Shown here piece by piece: positions 28,408 to 43,252 of a DNA stretch of 43,714 nucleotides (its first letter is position 1; each line of letters starts with the position of its first letter). A program made the position numbers and the translations under genes. The notes below the pieces were generated by a model. That model saw only the letters and a program-made list of their open reading frames with translations. It did not search any database and had not been told where the DNA came from. The stretch is from Tidjanibacter sp. (lineage in GTDB: Bacteria; Bacteroidota; Bacteroidia; Bacteroidales; Rikenellaceae). The stretch is from contig JAGBGK010000049.1 in assembly GCA_017936005.1 (NCBI GenBank), positions 1 to 43,714 on the forward strand, written 5' to 3'.

Positions 28408-28775
28408 CAAACCGAAGTTGCTTTTGCAAAATCTTTCATATATTTGTAGTGCCTAACTGCCTAATAGCATTGGGCGTACATATTTATTGATGAAAGTGTA
28501 TTAGCTTTTGTCCTTGAACGAAAATGTGGAAGTTTTCAGAACACAAGGTAAGCAACACACTCGTCACTCCGTATTGCATAGTATTTGGGGTGTTCTGCCC
28601 CATACTCATTCGATACGAGTGTGGGGTATGTTTATTTGTGTTCGGGTCATTCCACAACCTTCGTTCAGATAGACTAATCAACTCCACACTTTCTTTTTGC
28701 CCATAACCCACCGCATAGGAGTTGCTACGGTAATGTGATTTGGAACAAAATATGTTAAACCAAATTTATATTACT
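28408..28775 (+). promoter_or_regulatory. Long upstream region of the surface lipoprotein gene
   Basis: A plus-strand -7 box TATATTTG (28439-28446) with TTG 18 bases upstream would start a transcript near 28453, about 320 bases before the lipoprotein ATG. The leader includes a 10-bp stem (28598-28607 with 28617-28626, loop of nine bases) and no convincing coding frame. Either a long regulated leader or a separate small RNA is possible; no other promoter nearer to the gene was recognised. Confidence 0.4.
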
Positions 28776-31673
28776 ATGAAAAAACTACTCTACATTGTTC
28801 CCCTGCTGCTGGGAATGGCCCTCACTTCGTGCTACGATGAGGACATCGAGAAAATCAACAGCCGTTTAGATGCAATCGAAAACACCCAAATCGCAACCAT
28901 CAGTCAGCAAATCACCTCAATCAACAACTCCATTCTGCTCCTCAATGGCACCGACAAGGAGTTGAAGGACTACATCACCACCCTCGAAAAGGAGGCAGAG
29001 AATTTGCAGACCCAAATCACCACTACCAACACCAAGATTGACGAGGTGAAAACCGAGGTGCTCTCCACAATTTCTACTGAAAAGGCGAACATCCTTGCAG
29101 AGTTGGAGGCATTGAGGAATACCACCGCCGCTCGTTTGGAGGAAATCAATGCAACCATCGCCGAACTCAAAGCGGCAGATGGCGATATGAGTGCACAGAT
29201 TGAAGCACTTGAAGCGGAGGCAGCACAGTTGGAGGTAAAACTTGCCGAGACCAACACCAAAATCGACACCGTAAAGAGCGAACTCACCGAAACCATCAGC
29301 ACCGAGAAGGCAAATATCCTTGCAGAGTTGGAGGCGTTCAGGGCAACCGTAAATGGCGAGTTGGAGGCTATCAAAGCAGTGCTTGAAACTCTCAAAGCAA
29401 AAGATGCGGAGTTGGATGGTAAGATTGCCACTCTCCAAGAGTATGTAGATACCGAGTTGAAAGCAACCGAGGATTGGGCGACTGCCACCTTTGCCACTTT
29501 GGAGCAGTACAACGAGGTGGTTGCAACCATCGCCACCATCGAGGGTGCTATCGAGGGTCTGAACGAGAGCATTGCCGCCCTCGAAACCCGCATCAATGAG
29601 AAGATTGCCAAAGACATCGAAACCGCTTGCGCAACCCTCTCGGCAGACTTGCAGAAAGCAGTGGAGGACATCACTACCGCATACACCTCTGCCATCACCA
29701 CCGCAAAGGAAGAGATTACCACAGCCTACACCGCCAAGTTGGAAGGTGCAATCTCCGCCCTCGAAACCTCAATGAAGGAGTGGGTAAATGAGCAACTCAC
29801 CGCCTACTCAACCATCGTGAGTACCGAGGCAAAAATCACCGCCTTGCAGAGCGAGATGGATGGCAAACTTGCAGCGCAGAAAACCTACTTGGAGGCACTT
29901 GTGAATGCCCTTTCTTCTAGCGTTACCACCGACATTACCGCTATCAGAAAGCAGATTGAGGAAATTGAAGAGGCAATCACCAAGAACGCAGAGGAGATTG
30001 AGAAACTGCGTGGTGAACTTGCTGAGCAGAAAGAGGAACTCACCGAGGCATATACCGCTGCCATCGCTGCCGCTATTGCCGAGAGCGAGGGCAAGATGAG
30101 CGACAAACTCGCAGAGGAGATTGCTGCCATAAACGAGCGCATCGACAAATCGGACATCGCCGCCATTGAGGCACTCATTGCCAACTGCAAGGCACGAATG
30201 GAAACTGCCGAAGCAGACATTGTACAACTCAAAGCTAATGTGCTCCAACTGCAAGTGGATGTTGAAGAGTTGCAGGAGATTACCGAGAAACTCCTGGCGC
30301 AAATTCAGTCCATCACCTACATCCCCACCTACGATGACGGCAAAGCAACCATCGACTACCACACCAAACGAGGCACCCTCGACTTCCAAATCTCGCCCAA
30401 GAGCGCAATCAACGACTTGGAGAAGGTGTGGCAAACCGCACTCTCGGTGAAGGCTGTCGCTACCCAAACCCGTGCTGTGGACTTCATCAACCTCCCCATC
30501 ACAGCCTTTGAGGCAGATGCCACTAACGGAACTATCACCATCGAGGTTGACGGTTCGAACTTGGGGGATGCGTTCTTCACAGAAAAATCCACCGCCAGCG
30601 CCACCATCGAAGTGTCGGACGGCAACAACTGCCTAAACTCCGCATATCTCAACCTTACCGCCAACTTTATCATTCACTTTGAGGATAAAGAGGTGGAAAG
30701 ATTGTGTGTCTTGAATTGGGATACTGATGGTGATTTGAAACTTTCGTATGAGGAGGCTGCTGCGGTAACTAGTTTAGGAACCATTTTCCAAGAAACGGAA
30801 AAATATTATGGAACACGAATACAAAAATTTAATGAGCTACAGTATTTTATAAATATAACAGAAATTAGTGGGTTTGAGGGATGTGCGGAGTTGCTGGAAA
30901 TTATTCTTCCCAATAATTGTATCTCTATTGGGGACTCAGCATTCGCTGGTTGTAAGAGTCTTATTGGTATTACAATCCCCAATAATGTAGTGTCGATTGG
31001 AAATAGTGCGTTTTCCGGTTGCTCAAATCTAGCAAGTATCATCATCCCCAAGAGTGTCACTTCGTTTGGTAGAGATGCCTTCTATGGTTGCACGGGTGAG
31101 TTGACTATAAATTGTGATATTCCATCAGCATCATCCTCCGATTATAGGGTTTTCAGGGGGTGTAAATTTACCAAAGTGATTATTGGTGACAGCGTTGCTT
31201 TGATTGGCGCTTTTGCATTTTATGACTATAATTCTTCGCCAATTGCCAATGTGGTTGTAGGTAATGGAGTTACTTTGATTGGAAATAGGGCGTTTTCCGG
31301 TTGCTCAAATCTAGCAAGCATCACTATTCCCGATAGCGTCACTTCGATTGGAGAGTATGCGTTCTCTGGTTGCCCAAACCTTACGAGCGTAATTATTGGT
31401 AATGGTGTTGAAAATATTGAAGAGCGTGCATTTTCTGATTGTTCGAGCCTTGCAGTGGTGTATTGCAAACCCACTACACCTCCTGCTTTGTTTCGCTATT
31501 ATTTTTATTCATCATCAATTACGAGAGTCTTTCCTTTGAATTCTGGGATGGTAATATATGTGCCCGCTGATGCATACACATCATATAAACAATATACATC
31601 GACAGGCGATGGCACACTTCCCGATAATTGGGCTGAGTATAAATCATACATCAAACCTTACAATTTTGAGTAA
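28776..31673 (+). CDS. Large surface lipoprotein: coiled coil, beta domain, EF-hand loop and BspA-like leucine-rich repeats
   Basis: The 965-residue product has a lipoprotein signal ending LLGMALTSC. The mature start YDEDIEKINSRLDAIE resembles the N-terminal coiled-coil domain (DUF4988-like) of Bacteroidetes surface proteins. A very long coiled coil follows to about residue 510, with a 75-residue internal repeat (TNTKID...STEKANILAELEA twice). Residues about 513-635 are beta-rich. An EF-hand-like calcium loop, DTDGDLKLSYEE, sits at 649-660, and LRR_5 repeats (TIPDSVTSIGEYAFSGC) run from about 688 to 890. No type IX sorting domain is seen. BspA-like proteins bind host or microbial surfaces; adhesion is an inference. 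From about base 30,690 the DNA becomes AT-rich, unlike the first two thirds. Confidence 0.85.
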   Translation: MKKLLYIVPLLLGMALTSCYDEDIEKINSRLDAIENTQIATISQQITSINNSILLLNGTDKELKDYITTLEKEAENLQTQITTTNTKIDEVKTEVLSTISTEKANILAELEALRNTTAARLEEINATIAELKAADGDMSAQIEALEAEAAQLEVKLAETNTKIDTVKSELTETISTEKANILAELEAFRATVNGELEAIKAVLETLKAKDAELDGKIATLQEYVDTELKATEDWATATFATLEQYNEVVATIATIEGAIEGLNESIAALETRINEKIAKDIETACATLSADLQKAVEDITTAYTSAITTAKEEITTAYTAKLEGAISALETSMKEWVNEQLTAYSTIVSTEAKITALQSEMDGKLAAQKTYLEALVNALSSSVTTDITAIRKQIEEIEEAITKNAEEIEKLRGELAEQKEELTEAYTAAIAAAIAESEGKMSDKLAEEIAAINERIDKSDIAAIEALIANCKARMETAEADIVQLKANVLQLQVDVEELQEITEKLLAQIQSITYIPTYDDGKATIDYHTKRGTLDFQISPKSAINDLEKVWQTALSVKAVATQTRAVDFINLPITAFEADATNGTITIEVDGSNLGDAFFTEKSTASATIEVSDGNNCLNSAYLNLTANFIIHFEDKEVERLCVLNWDTDGDLKLSYEEAAAVTSLGTIFQETEKYYGTRIQKFNELQYFINITEISGFEGCAELLEIILPNNCISIGDSAFAGCKSLIGITIPNNVVSIGNSAFSGCSNLASIIIPKSVTSFGRDAFYGCTGELTINCDIPSASSSDYRVFRGCKFTKVIIGDSVALIGAFAFYDYNSSPIANVVVGNGVTLIGNRAFSGCSNLASITIPDSVTSIGEYAFSGCPNLTSVIIGNGVENIEERAFSDCSSLAVVYCKPTTPPALFRYYFYSSSITRVFPLNSGMVIYVPADAYTSYKQYTSTGDGTLPDNWAEYKSYIKPYNFE

Positions 31674-39499: not shown

Positions 39500-41383
39500 A
39501 TGAGATTTAACTACGATGTGATAGTTATCGGTGGCGGCCACGCAGGTTGCGAGGCTGCGGCTGCGGCTGCCAACCTCGGAGCCGAGACGCTCCTCATTAC
39601 AATGGATATGACCAAATATGCCTCAATGTCGTGCAATCCGGCAGTGGGAGGCGTAGCCAAAGGTCAGATAGTCAGAGAGATAGATGCGCTCGGAGGACAG
39701 ATGGGTATCATCACAGACCTCAGTACCATACAGTTCCGTATGCTCAACCGCTCTAAGGGAGTCGCAATGTGGAGCCCAAGGGCGCAGTGCGATAAGGCCA
39801 AATTCTCGGCCTTGTGGCGCAAAACACTCGAAAACACCAACAACCTAAAATTGTGGCAAGACACTGTAAATCAGCTAATTGTAGAAGAAGTCGAGGGGCA
39901 ACATACGGTTGTTGGAGTAAAAACAATGCTCGGTGTTGAGTTCCGAGCAGGGGCCGTAATCCTCACCGCAGGCACCTTCTTGGGTGGCCTGATGCACGTT
40001 GGTCGCAATAGTGCCGAGGGAGGTAGGGCAGGGGATAGTGCCTCACACGGAGTTACCGAACAACTCGTTTCGCTTGGCTTTGAGGCGGGTAGGATGAAGA
40101 CAGGAACGCCCGTGAGAATTGACGCAAGATCGCTCGACCTCGAGCAGTTTGAGCGTCAGGAGGGCGACGAAAAACCACAAAAATTCTCATTCCTCTCGTC
40201 CATCACACCCGTAGAGGAACAAAAGCCTTGCTACCTGGTATATACTTCCTCGGAGGTACACGACACCCTACGAACAGGTTTTGACGATTCTCCTTTGTTT
40301 CAAGGCCTTATCAAAGGCATAGGCCCCCGATACTGCCCAAGCATTGAGGATAAATTGCGTACCTTTGCCGACAAGGATTTCCACCAGCTCTTCCTCGAAC
40401 CCGAGGGTGAAGACACCAATGAGTATTATCTCAACGGCTTCTCTTCGAGCCTACCGTGGCAGGTGCAAGTCAAAGCCCTATCGCAAATCAAGGGCTTTGA
40501 AAATGTGGACATCTATCGCCCCGGCTACGCCATTGAGTATGACTATTTCCCACCCACGCAACTCCACCACACCCTCGAAACAAAACTTGTAGAGAACCTC
40601 TATTTTGCTGGACAAGTCAACGGAACTACCGGATATGAAGAGGCTGCCGCACAGGGTTTAGTTGCCGGCGTGAATGCCGTTCGCAAGGGTAGGGGAGAGA
40701 GCCCCTTTGTACTTTCGAGGGACGAGGCCTACATTGGGGTATTGATTGACGACCTTGTAACCAAAGGTGTTGATGAGCCATACCGTATGTTCACAAGCCG
40801 AGCCGAGTATCGCATCCTTCTGCGACAAGACAATGCCGACTTGCGACTCACCCCCATTGCACAAAAAATAGGCCTTGCCACACCTGAAAGAATTGCAAAT
40901 TTTGAGCAAAAAAAATCGCTCGTAGAATCGCTTAAAAAATATGTGCAAAAGCAAGGGGTCGCTCCAAGCGAAATTTCACACTATTTAGAAAGTGTGAATT
41001 CCGCACAACTTTCGCAAAAAAGAAAACTCTCAGAGGTGTTAATCCGCAACGAAATTACACTTTTGGGACTGATTGAGAATTTTTCACCTCTAAAAAAATT
41101 TGTAGAGAAAAACAACATTGGAGACGATGTCATCGAACAAGTGGAAATTGAGATAAAATACAGCGGCTACATCGAGCGAGAGAGGGCCAATGCAGACAAA
41201 CTAAAAAGGCTCGAAGATATCAAAATTCCTGCTAATTTTGACTTCACCGCCATAACATCCATAACAATCGAGGCTCGCCAAAAACTATCTCGCATTCACC
41301 CAACCACCATCGGCCAAGCATCCCGCATACCAGGCGTGTCGCCTGCCGACATCAACATCCTCCTCATTCACTTCGGCCGATAG
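39500..41383 (+). CDS. mnmG: tRNA uridine-5-carboxymethylaminomethyl modification enzyme MnmG
   Basis: MnmG (GidA), with MnmE, installs the carboxymethylaminomethyl group on wobble U34 of several tRNAs, using FAD. The 627-residue protein has the FAD-binding start YDVIVIGGGHAGCEAAAAAANLG, the conserved SCNPAVGGVAKGQIVREIDALGG, the GRVGD-like GGRAGDSASHG, KTGTPVRID, QVNGTTGYEEAAAQG, and a helical C-terminal domain ending in LIHFGR. Length is normal. Convergent with glnS; two parS-like palindromes lie in the gap. Confidence 0.97.
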   Translation: MRFNYDVIVIGGGHAGCEAAAAAANLGAETLLITMDMTKYASMSCNPAVGGVAKGQIVREIDALGGQMGIITDLSTIQFRMLNRSKGVAMWSPRAQCDKAKFSALWRKTLENTNNLKLWQDTVNQLIVEEVEGQHTVVGVKTMLGVEFRAGAVILTAGTFLGGLMHVGRNSAEGGRAGDSASHGVTEQLVSLGFEAGRMKTGTPVRIDARSLDLEQFERQEGDEKPQKFSFLSSITPVEEQKPCYLVYTSSEVHDTLRTGFDDSPLFQGLIKGIGPRYCPSIEDKLRTFADKDFHQLFLEPEGEDTNEYYLNGFSSSLPWQVQVKALSQIKGFENVDIYRPGYAIEYDYFPPTQLHHTLETKLVENLYFAGQVNGTTGYEEAAAQGLVAGVNAVRKGRGESPFVLSRDEAYIGVLIDDLVTKGVDEPYRMFTSRAEYRILLRQDNADLRLTPIAQKIGLATPERIANFEQKKSLVESLKKYVQKQGVAPSEISHYLESVNSAQLSQKRKLSEVLIRNEITLLGLIENFSPLKKFVEKNNIGDDVIEQVEIEIKYSGYIERERANADKLKRLEDIKIPANFDFTAITSITIEARQKLSRIHPTTIGQASRIPGVSPADINILLIHFGR

Positions 41384-41424
41384 AGTAGGATACAAGGGCG
41401 AAAACACCCAAAAGCCGCCACTAA

Positions 41425-41440
41425 TGTTCCACGTGGAACA
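41425..41440. other. parS-like palindrome 1
   Basis: TGTTCCACGTGGAACA, a perfect 16-bp palindrome (20 bp counting the flanking AA/TT, 41423-41442). It fits the widely conserved parS consensus TGTTNCACGTGNAACA bound by ParB/Spo0J. Confidence 0.75.
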
Positions 41441-41479
41441 TTCTAAAACAAAAAAAACACAAGGGTAACATACAAACAA

Positions 41480-41509
41480 AAAAAGGAGGGGTAAATACCT
41501 CTCCTTTTT
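41480..41509. terminator. Bidirectional terminator between mnmG and glnS
   Basis: AAAAAGGAGGGGT (41480-41492) pairs with ACCTCTCCTTTTT (41497-41509) with one G-T pair and an AAAT loop. It lies between the two parS-like sites. Confidence 0.85.
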
Positions 41510-41513
41510 GCAT

Positions 41514-41529
41514 TGTTCCACGTGGAACA
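41514..41529. other. parS-like palindrome 2
   Basis: A second exact copy of TGTTCCACGTGGAACA, 89 bases from the first, immediately 3' of the glnS stop. Confidence 0.75.
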
Positions 41530-43212
41530 CTATTTCTTCTGCAACTTTGCCCAAGTGTCTTTGAGGGTGACAGTGCGGTTGAAAACAACCTTTTCGGCCG
41601 TACTATCTTTGTCAACGCAGAAGTAGCCAACTCGCTCAAATTGGAACTTATCACCAACCTTTGCCTCGCCAAGCGACCTCTCACAATAGGCGGTTTTCAC
41701 AACAAGCGAGTTGGGATTAAGATAATCAAGGAATGTTTTACCCTCCTCGACATCATCAGGACTCTCCTTTGCAAATAAATTGTCGTAGAGCCTAACCTCC
41801 GCCTCAACTGCATCGGCAGCCGACACCCAATGGATAACACCCTTAACCTTGCGGCCATCGGACGAACCACCACCTGCCGACTCGGGGTCGTAGGTGCAGT
41901 GCAACTCCACAATATTGCCCTCGGCATCCTTAACCACCTCCTCACATTTGATAAGATAGCCATACCTCAGGCGCACCTCGCCATCAGGGCGAAGGCGATA
42001 GTAACCCTTAGGAGGCTCCTCCATAAAGTCGGCACGCTCGATGTAAATTTCCCTACCAAAGGGCACCTCACGACGACCAGCAGCCTCATCCTCGGGGTTG
42101 TTGACACAACTGAAATTCTCGGTTTTACCCTCGGGATAGTTGGTAATAACCACCTTCAAGGGGTCAACAACAGCCATCCTACGCTCGGCGGTCTTGTTCA
42201 AATCCTCCCTCACGCAATACTCCAACAGCGAAAGGTCAATCACATTATCCCTCTTTGCAACACCAACCCTCTCGGCAAAAGCACGGATGGATGCAGGGGT
42301 GTAACCCTTACGACGAAGAGCGCAAATGGTGGGCATTCGGGGGTCGTCCCAACCCGTAACAAATTGTTCCTTAACGAGTTGCAGCAATTTGCGCTTACTC
42401 ATAACGGTATAAGTGAGGTTCAACCTTGCGAATTCGTATTGGTGGCTGGGGAAGATGTCCAACTCCTGAATAAACCAATCGTAAAGGGGGCGATGAACGT
42501 CAAATTCGAGCGTACAGATCGAGTGGGTGATACGCTCGATGGAGTCGCTCTGGCCGTGGGCATAGTCATACATCGGGTAGATGCACCACTTGTTGCCCGT
42601 ACGGTGGTGTTCGGTGTGGAGGATGCGATAGAGAATGGGGTCGCGGAAGAGCATATTGGGGTGTGCCATATCAATTTTGGCCCTCAACACCTTCTCTCCG
42701 TCGGCATATTTTCCTGCCTTCATCTCCTCAAACAGTTGGAGGTTTTCCTCAACCGAACGATTGCGCCAAGGACTCTCGGTGCCAGGCTGCTGGATGGTAC
42801 CACGTCCGAGGCGAATTTGCTCTTGTGTTTGGTCATCAACATAGGCTTTTTCCTTCTTAATCAAGGTGATAGCCCACTCATACAATTGGTCGAAGTAGTC
42901 CGAAGCATAACGCTCAACGGCCCACTCGAAGCCGAGCCACTTGATGTCCTCCTTGATGGAGTCAACATACTCGGTGTCCTCTTTCACGGGGTTTGTGTCG
43001 TCGAAACGCAGGTTGCACTTACCGCCATAGCGCTGTGCGAGTCCGAAGTTCAGACAGATACTTTTGGCGTGTCCGATGTGCAGATAGCCGTTAGGCTCGG
43101 GCGGGAAACGAGTTTGAATAGTGTTTCCGGTCTCGGCGATATAGTTTTCGATAATCTCCTCAATGAAGTTGAGCGAGCGTTCTTTTACGGGTTCAGCTGT
43201 TTTTACCTCCAT
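41530..43212 (-). CDS. glnS: Glutamine-tRNA ligase
   Basis: GlnRS charges tRNA-Gln directly with glutamine. The 560-residue protein has the class I motifs [19 protein letters not shown] (HIGH) and VMSKRK (KMSKS), the DDTNP motif, and the two C-terminal anticodon-binding beta barrels (for example [11 protein letters not shown]). The start at 43212 is chosen because a TATTTTTG -7 box lies at 43252-43245, over a more upstream in-frame ATG at 43245. GlnRS is of eukaryotic-like origin in bacteria but is standard in Bacteroidetes. Confidence 0.97.
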
Positions 43213-43244
43213 AAACCAACTAATGAATTTAGATTTAGAAAGCA

Positions 43245-43252
43245 CAAAAATA
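43245..43252 (-). promoter_or_regulatory. -7 box of glnS
   Basis: TATTTTTG on the minus strand; the upstream -33 area is occupied by a 7-bp tandem repeat (43260-43287). Confidence 0.55.

What the first reader, a model, noticed from the sequence alone, without database searches (positions are those of the whole stretch)
41423..41529. Two parS-like centromere sites beside mnmG
Two exact copies of the 16-bp palindrome TGTTCCACGTGGAACA lie 89 bases apart in the gap between the convergent genes mnmG and glnS. The sequence fits the general parS consensus TGTTNCACGTGNAACA of chromosomal ParABS systems. A convergent gap holds no promoter for a repressor to control, which favours a chromosome-segregation site. 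mnmG (gidA) is near the replication origin in many bacteria, so this may mark the origin-proximal part of the chromosome.
Basis: partly seen in the sequence, partly recalled or inferred. Interest (0 to 1): 0.75.

Follow-up and report, generated by a model that had tools for sequence, protein, structure and literature searches.

The report
Chromosome centromere sites beside mnmG gene
These two short palindromes are very likely the sites where a gut bacterium's segregation protein grips the chromosome near its replication start, and the same sites sit beside the same gene in most of the relatives examined.

Summary
Confirmed: two exact TGTTCCACGTGGAACA copies at 41425-41440 and 41514-41529, between convergent mnmG and glnS. 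They are the only consensus sites in the 1.97-Mb draft genome (0.0076 expected), which also encodes a chromosomal-type ParB with an adjacent ParA-like frame. Of 80 named mnmG loci not chosen for parS, 75 carry the parS core within 500 bp of mnmG; nine control palindromes gave 0 each. In one single-contig relative the GC-skew minimum lies about 7.5 kb from parS; four coarsely sampled genomes fit less tightly (5-279 kb).

No canonical SMC passed the cut-off in 11 of 11 genomes of the window's class. In relatives parS is often embedded in a terminator-like palindrome (10 of 29 and 9 of 34 full sites in two genera; 0.15 and 0.07 with shuffled flanks); the window's sites are not, but flank a separate terminator-like hairpin.

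The sites are parS of a known kind; the mnmG anchoring and split arrangement are the notable part. ParB binding is untested.

The parts
41425..41440 (.). parS site 1, TGTTCCACGTGGAACA, perfect 16-bp palindrome
41514..41529 (.). parS site 2, identical to site 1, abutting the glnS stop codon
41480..41509 (.). terminator-like hairpin between the two parS sites: A-run, G+C stem, T-run. The pattern scan calls it on the + strand only (for mnmG); that it also serves glnS on the - strand is inferred from its A-run and the fold
   Evidence: + strand 41485-41502; 3 terminator-like matches in 500 bp, 0.7 expected; folds of fragments that hold this hairpin and parts of the parS sites: z -6.0 on +, -3.7 on -
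39500..41383 (+). mnmG (gidA), the gene beside which parS lies in most relatives examined
   Evidence: TIGR00136
41530..43245 (-). glnS, convergent neighbour
   Evidence: TIGR00440

Best explanation
The two palindromes are the chromosomal parS centromere of a ParABS system in a Rikenellaceae-like bacterium. ParB, made from a parAB pair elsewhere in the genome, binds each palindrome as a dimer, closes into a CTP-dependent clamp and slides onto the flanking DNA; ParA then moves the loaded origin region apart after replication. The sites lie in the convergent gap behind mnmG and glnS, with a terminator-like hairpin between them. Shown by computation: the sites, their uniqueness in the draft genome, a ParB with its CTP motif and the parS-type switch residues, the mnmG linkage, and the skew minimum beside parS in one relative. 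Inferred: ParB binding, clamp loading and segregation here, and that this genome's own origin is close by.
For: Consensus match and uniqueness. One ParB over cut-off in the own genome at G000:C15 (168 bits), with ParB_N and HTH_ParB domains, GERRWRA motif and R/G at the positions equivalent to Caulobacter R173/G201 (meaning of the residues from passages of PMC7383237), 45 bp downstream of a ParA-like frame with KGGVGKTT. Linkage: 30 of 30 loci from one family genus, chosen for having the exact site; 26 of 29 loci from the phylum draw, likewise chosen for the site; 75 of 80 named mnmG loci not chosen for parS; own genus 21 of 23 genomes beside mnmG, one-mismatch variants included, and one more beside glnS at a contig start; 5 of 5 sampled single-contig genomes. 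Near mnmG 157 core sites in 78 kb; farther out 17 in 1.26 Mb; nine control palindromes 0 each. Skew: G008 minimum 1.837 Mb, parS 1.8295 Mb.
Against: No binding data. The own ParB has D where Caulobacter has the parS-contacting N178 (all 19 relatives shown have N; 4 more were dropped because my motif search missed them) and K for S172. The own genome's origin cannot be placed. In four other single-contig genomes sampled at 110-215 kb steps, the best-fit origin was 5, 110, 276 and 279 kb from parS, and 4-11% of all positions scored at least as well as parS. Five of 80 mnmG loci lack a site within 500 bp: one is cut 298 bp after mnmG, one has sites 3.5-4.9 kb away, three have none in the DNA held. 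Two genomes of the class have their parS away from mnmG (26 kb off, and on another contig). 38 of 148 phylum genomes have no exact consensus site, and those were not checked for variants.
Confidence: 0.92

Rival explanations
1. The palindromes are operators of a transcription factor that happens to share the parS sequence.
For: They are short perfect palindromes, and some relatives also carry sites upstream of mnmG, where a promoter could lie (9 of 80 loci with upstream sites only, 41 with both).
Against: In the window they lie behind two convergent genes; there are only two in the draft genome; in different relatives sites lie upstream, downstream or on both sides of mnmG, which fits a place and not a promoter.
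Confidence: 0.04
2. They are only parts of transcription terminators of mnmG and glnS; the parS likeness is incidental.
For: parS RNA folds as a hairpin; in relatives the 16-mer sits inside a longer terminator-like stem in 10 of 29 and 9 of 34 full sites; the scan calls site 2 terminator-like on the + strand.
Against: A terminator needs no fixed sequence, yet the 16-mer recurs nearly unchanged while stems and spacing vary; in the window a separate terminator-like hairpin is present.
Confidence: 0.03
3. They are nucleoid-occlusion (Noc/NBS-type) sites and not parS.
For: Noc is a close ParB relative; solved Noc chains match the own ParB.
Against: The NBS consensus differs (TATTTCCCGGGAAATA, passage of PMC7383237); the own ParB has R and G at the switch positions, not Noc's Q and R; Noc sites would be many, not two (recalled).
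Confidence: 0.01

Closest known systems
Chromosomal parS of ParABS (Bacillus subtilis, Caulobacter, Pseudomonas)
   Same: 16-bp consensus, few clustered copies, chromosomal-type ParB and adjacent ParA-like frame in the genome, close to the skew minimum in one relative.
   Different: In the single-contig relatives examined parAB and (in the window's class) dnaA are far from parS; the sites lie beside mnmG; no canonical SMC over the cut-off in the genomes of that class tested. The usual closeness of parAB, parS and origin in those models is recalled.
parS of the two Bacteroidetes (Bacteroides caecimuris, Muribaculum intestinale) in the Hi-C study PMC10197239 (passages read)
   Same: Same phylum; over 12 gut species the authors used parS clusters plus GC skew to place the origin, noted that the origin does not systematically go with dnaA, and found no known condensin in three species, these two among them.
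   Different: The passages read do not mention mnmG, the distance to parAB, or terminators.
Ancestral origin gene cluster (parA, parB, gidA, gidB, dnaA and others; passage of PMC2099444)
   Same: mnmG is gidA, an origin-cluster gene, and here it keeps the parS sites.
   Different: parAB and, in the window's class, dnaA lie elsewhere; mnmG and parS stay together.

Membership tests
chromosomal parS / ParABS | 16-bp consensus TGTTNCACGTGNAACA | tested here: met
   two exact matches, the only two in the draft genome
chromosomal parS / ParABS | chromosomal-type ParB in the same genome | tested here: met
   TIGR00180 168 bits; ParB_N and HTH_ParB over cut-off, ParB_C just under its cut-off (23.5 against 23.8 bits). 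Relatives: 24 of 24 genomes, 10 of 12 (the two misses are drafts 82% and 90% complete)
chromosomal parS / ParABS | ParA gene beside parB | tested here: met
   frame with KGGVGKTT ending 45 bp before parB (read from the sequence, no family search run on it)
chromosomal parS / ParABS | parS-type DNA-contact residues and CTP motif | tested here: met
   R and G at the 173 and 201 equivalents, GERRWRA present; but D at 178 and K at 172 in the own ParB
chromosomal parS / ParABS | sites close to the replication origin | tested here: inconclusive
   about 7.5 kb in G008; 5-279 kb in four coarsely sampled genomes; own genome not mappable
chromosomal parS / ParABS | parAB near parS (usual, not strictly defining) | tested here: not met
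   0.4-1.4 Mb apart in 9 of 9 single-contig relatives. Own genome: on different contigs, so the distance is not known
chromosomal parS / ParABS | ParB binding, CTP clamp closure and segregation | not testable with these tools
   needs ChIP-seq, biochemistry and imaging
ParB-parS loading of Smc-ScpAB | canonical SMC in the genome | tested here: not met
   TIGR02168: best own match 29 bits against a cut-off of 567; 0 of 11 genomes of the window's class over the cut-off (all have weak matches, at most 31.6 bits); 2 of 2 genomes of another class over it. ScpA, ScpB and MksB were not searched; the own genome is 88.8% complete
Noc/NBS | NBS consensus and Q/K/K/R switch residues | tested here: not met

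The most novel reading that the evidence does not exclude
Across the Bacteroidota the centromere is anchored to one housekeeping gene, mnmG, as the surviving remnant of an ancestral gidA-parAB-oriC cluster, while parAB and, in the window's class, dnaA have moved far away. In that class it works without canonical SMC, and in some genera the parS palindrome has merged with the terminator behind mnmG into one element that both stops RNA polymerase and loads ParB.
Probability: 0.5. Interest if true: 0.65.

Novelty: new member of a known kind. Interest (0 to 1): 0.5.

Why it matters
If right, mnmG is a ready marker for the centromere and the likely origin in Bacteroidota, including fragmented metagenome assemblies in which dnaA would mislead. 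It also offers a group in which ParB-parS can be studied apart from canonical SMC and from a linked parAB, which makes the question of what ParB-parS does without condensin testable. The terminator-parS composites raise a concrete question about transcription through ParB loading sites.

Tried and rejected
Exact consensus counts as the measure of parS presence: rejected, because genomes without the exact 16-mer carry near variants in the same place. Of the 51 family genomes without the exact 16-mer I searched 21; 20 had an mnmG match, and 19 of these 20 have a site with at most one mismatch (the two N positions not counted) whose nearest copy lies within 520 bp of mnmG; the twentieth, L325, has one 901 bp away; G109, 59% complete, gave no mnmG match.

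A fixed spacing between sites: rejected; 27 neighbouring pairs lie 36-240 bp apart with no evident helical phase.

ParB co-evolution with the asymmetric variant sites: not supported. No column of the DNA-binding domain separates 5 ParBs of asymmetric-site genomes from 17 others when both genera are taken together. Within g22 alone a few do (for example A against S just before the 178 position), but that A is common in own-genus ParBs of standard-site genomes. One of the 17 rows (L151) was a wrong-frame translation, seven pieces were partial, and 5 is few.

DnaA-box clusters: none of at least 3 TTWTNCACA in 600 bp, in 400 kb of G008 or in the window.

The 977-aa coiled-coil frame at 28740-31670 as an SMC: rejected; by Pfam it holds BspA-type leucine-rich repeats.

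Papers: eight library searches bearing on parS in Bacteroidota, mnmG/gidA or terminators listed no title on parS-mnmG linkage. I read passages of six papers (PMC10197239, PMC2099444, PMC2768785, PMC7383237, PMC7022226, PMC13342612); a look into PMC7203096 found no passage in the part held; all others I saw only as listings. Livny 2007, the main parS survey, is not held, so it may already report part of this.

Full report
OBSERVATION. Two exact 16-bp palindromes TGTTCCACGTGGAACA lie at 41425-41440 and 41514-41529. mnmG ends at 41383 on the + strand and glnS occupies 41530-43245 on the - strand. The second site touches the glnS stop codon. A hairpin with an A-run before and a T-run after it lies between them at 41480-41509; the scan calls it terminator-like on the + strand only. 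In the own genome (1,971,499 bases, 80 contigs, 88.8% complete) these are the only two consensus matches, with 0.0076 expected from the window's base composition; nothing else comes within two mismatches.

PROTEIN SIDE. The own genome has one ParB over the TIGR00180 cut-off, on contig C15, 45 bp downstream of a frame that reads as ParA (KGGVGKTT). It carries ParB_N and HTH_ParB, matches solved ParB chains such as 4umk and 6t1f, has the GERRWRA motif, and has R and G at the positions equivalent to Caulobacter R173 and G201, which go with parS and not NBS binding in PMC7383237 (passages). It differs at two other contact positions (K for S172, D for N178); all 19 relatives shown keep N178, and 4 more were dropped because my motif search missed them.

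ORGANISM. The closest named mnmG loci are MAGs labelled Tidjanibacter sp. (L071, 89% protein identity in the best segment) and Rikenellaceae bacterium (L067, 82%). The family is therefore probably Rikenellaceae, an inference from those labels.

LINKAGE. Own genus: 17 of 23 genomes hold the parS core. Of the 17 loci cut out, the own one included, 16 show MnmG and 16 show GlnS in the fetched DNA; the one without MnmG (G103) has its site beside glnS at a contig start. Of the six genomes without the core, five carry one-mismatch variants beside mnmG and one (59% complete) has no mnmG match. Family: 99 of 150 genomes have the exact 16-mer, 1-4 copies each; in 30 of 30 loci, all from genus g22 and chosen for the exact site, mnmG lies within the 1.5-kb flank. 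Of 20 family genomes without the exact 16-mer in which mnmG was found (the five just named among them), 19 have a near-match beside mnmG. Phylum draw (genomes at least 95% complete): 110 of 148 have the consensus; of 29 loci examined, 26 from the window's class and 3 from another class, 26 have mnmG in the 1.5-kb flank, including all 3 of the other class. Of the three without, one is at a contig start, one has mnmG about 26 kb away on the same contig, and one has it on another contig. Outside the class the linkage thus rests on 4 genomes examined (these 3 and G200). Not chosen for parS: of 80 named mnmG loci, 41 have core sites on both sides within 500 bp, 9 upstream only, 25 downstream only, 5 none. 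There are 157 sites in 78,477 bp near mnmG, 1 in 148,582 bp inside it and 17 in 1,262,500 bp farther out; the whole set should hold 0.05 by base composition, and nine control palindromes gave 0 each. The 80 are the best of 588 matches, those most like the window's MnmG, so they are not an even sample of the phylum.

ORIGIN. The reading that the skew turns from minus to plus at the origin is standard (recalled). Single-contig relative G008: the cumulative GC-skew minimum at 1.837 Mb falls at the lowest-GC 300-bp stretch of the 50 kb scanned, about 7.5 kb from parS. In 3 of 11 named loci looked at (L067, L068, L070, all Rikenellaceae or Alistipes by label) an AT-rich gap lies between homologues of the same two genes about 5-6 kb past parS, with the locus's skew minimum within about 2 kb of it; the closest relative L071 and the others do not show this arrangement in the DNA held. 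This is a candidate origin; no DnaA-box cluster was found, and the window's contig ends 2.2 kb past parS. Coarser sampling, with parS beside mnmG in every case: best-fit origin 279 kb (G057), 276 kb (G205), 5 kb (G243) and 110 kb (G200) from parS; the share of positions scoring at least as well as parS was 10.4%, 8.4%, 4.1% and 10.7%, and 3.3% for G008. These agree with an origin-side location but do not pin it.

SPLIT SYSTEM. In 9 of 9 single-contig relatives for which I located both, parB lies far from parS: 1.07 (G008), 1.30 (G049), 1.38 (G057), 0.76 (G087), 0.88 (G205), 1.17 (G266), 1.29 (G243), 0.40 (G200) and 0.40 Mb (G254) (positions; five of these also computed). Two of the nine (G049, G087) have a second, larger ParB-like protein, not counted here. 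dnaA is 0.75-1.4 Mb away in the seven of the window's class and about 7 kb away in G200 of another class (for G254 the genome length is known only rounded, so its distance is not given). No canonical SMC reached the cut-off in 11 of 11 genomes of the window's class, the own one included, although all have weak matches of at most 31.6 bits; both genomes of another class reached it (13 genomes; Polaribacter, named, is counted in the class by recall). A published Hi-C study likewise reported no known condensin in its two Bacteroidetes and, over its 12 species, origins that do not systematically go with dnaA (PMC10197239, passages).

TERMINATOR COMPOSITES. In relatives the 16-mer is often extended by perfectly complementary arms of at least 5 bp, often G+C-rich inside with A/T runs outside: 10 of 29 full sites in the own genus, 9 of 34 in g22, 3 of 42 in the phylum loci, 9 of 109 in the named loci; shuffled flanks give means of 0.15, 0.07, 0.21 and 0.47. 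The three I folded (L175, L180, L184) each form one long hairpin. That these terminate transcription is an inference from form. Most sites lack such arms, the window's own two among them; its terminator-like hairpin is separate.

VARIANT SITES. Five own-genus genomes and two g22 genomes carry sites altered in one half of the core (TGTTCC[T/C]CGTGGAACA or its complement). In these seven genomes this pattern occurs only beside mnmG (the other five genomes examined have the standard site). No ParB DNA-binding residue tracked the change over both genera.

MECHANISM. ParB nucleates at parS, closes as a CTP clamp and spreads, and ParA moves the complex; this is established for ParABS elsewhere (recalled, and in the abstract of PMC8367383 as listed) and inferred here. 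The convergent, terminator-bearing gap would keep RNA polymerase away from the loading sites; this is a hypothesis. Without canonical SMC, the segregation role would rest on ParA or on an unrecognised condensin.

VERDICT. The sites are parS of the known kind. The anchoring beside mnmG, the distance to parAB, and the terminator composites are the notable part. I found none of these in the listings and passages seen, but the main survey (Livny 2007) was not readable.

Noticed in passing
L175, L176, L178-L180, L183-L185, L189, L191; g22 loci L008, L010, L013, L016, L020, L021, L024, L028, L035: parS 16-mer embedded at the apex of a longer, often terminator-like palindrome.
   Followed up: partly
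G053, G092, G094, G096, G105, G046, G123, beside mnmG: Asymmetric parS variants with one altered half of the core; G046 and G123 each have four copies in one orientation. No ParB change was found to go with them over both genera.
   Followed up: partly
L317 4001, L319 3999, L323 4021, L325 4279, L332 3075 and 3626: A recurring parS-like TGTTCCACGTGGAGCA, mostly about 600-900 bp downstream of mnmG in g22 genomes; possibly inside a neighbouring gene.
   Followed up: no
L224 16969-17352 (G008 about 1.837 Mb); matching gaps in L067, L068, L070: AT-rich gap at or near the GC-skew minimum, 5-7 kb past parS: a candidate replication origin without recognisable DnaA-box clusters.
   Followed up: partly
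window 28740-31673: 977-aa protein with coiled coil and BspA-type leucine-rich repeats.
   Followed up: no
G200:C1:416677-420188: The SMC match is split into two frames, one with 2 TGA stops inside, so the gene looks broken or misassembled there.
   Followed up: no
L170-L174: Second ParB-like proteins in frames of 616-744 aa in G087, G299, G037 and G049, possibly of mobile elements.
   Followed up: no
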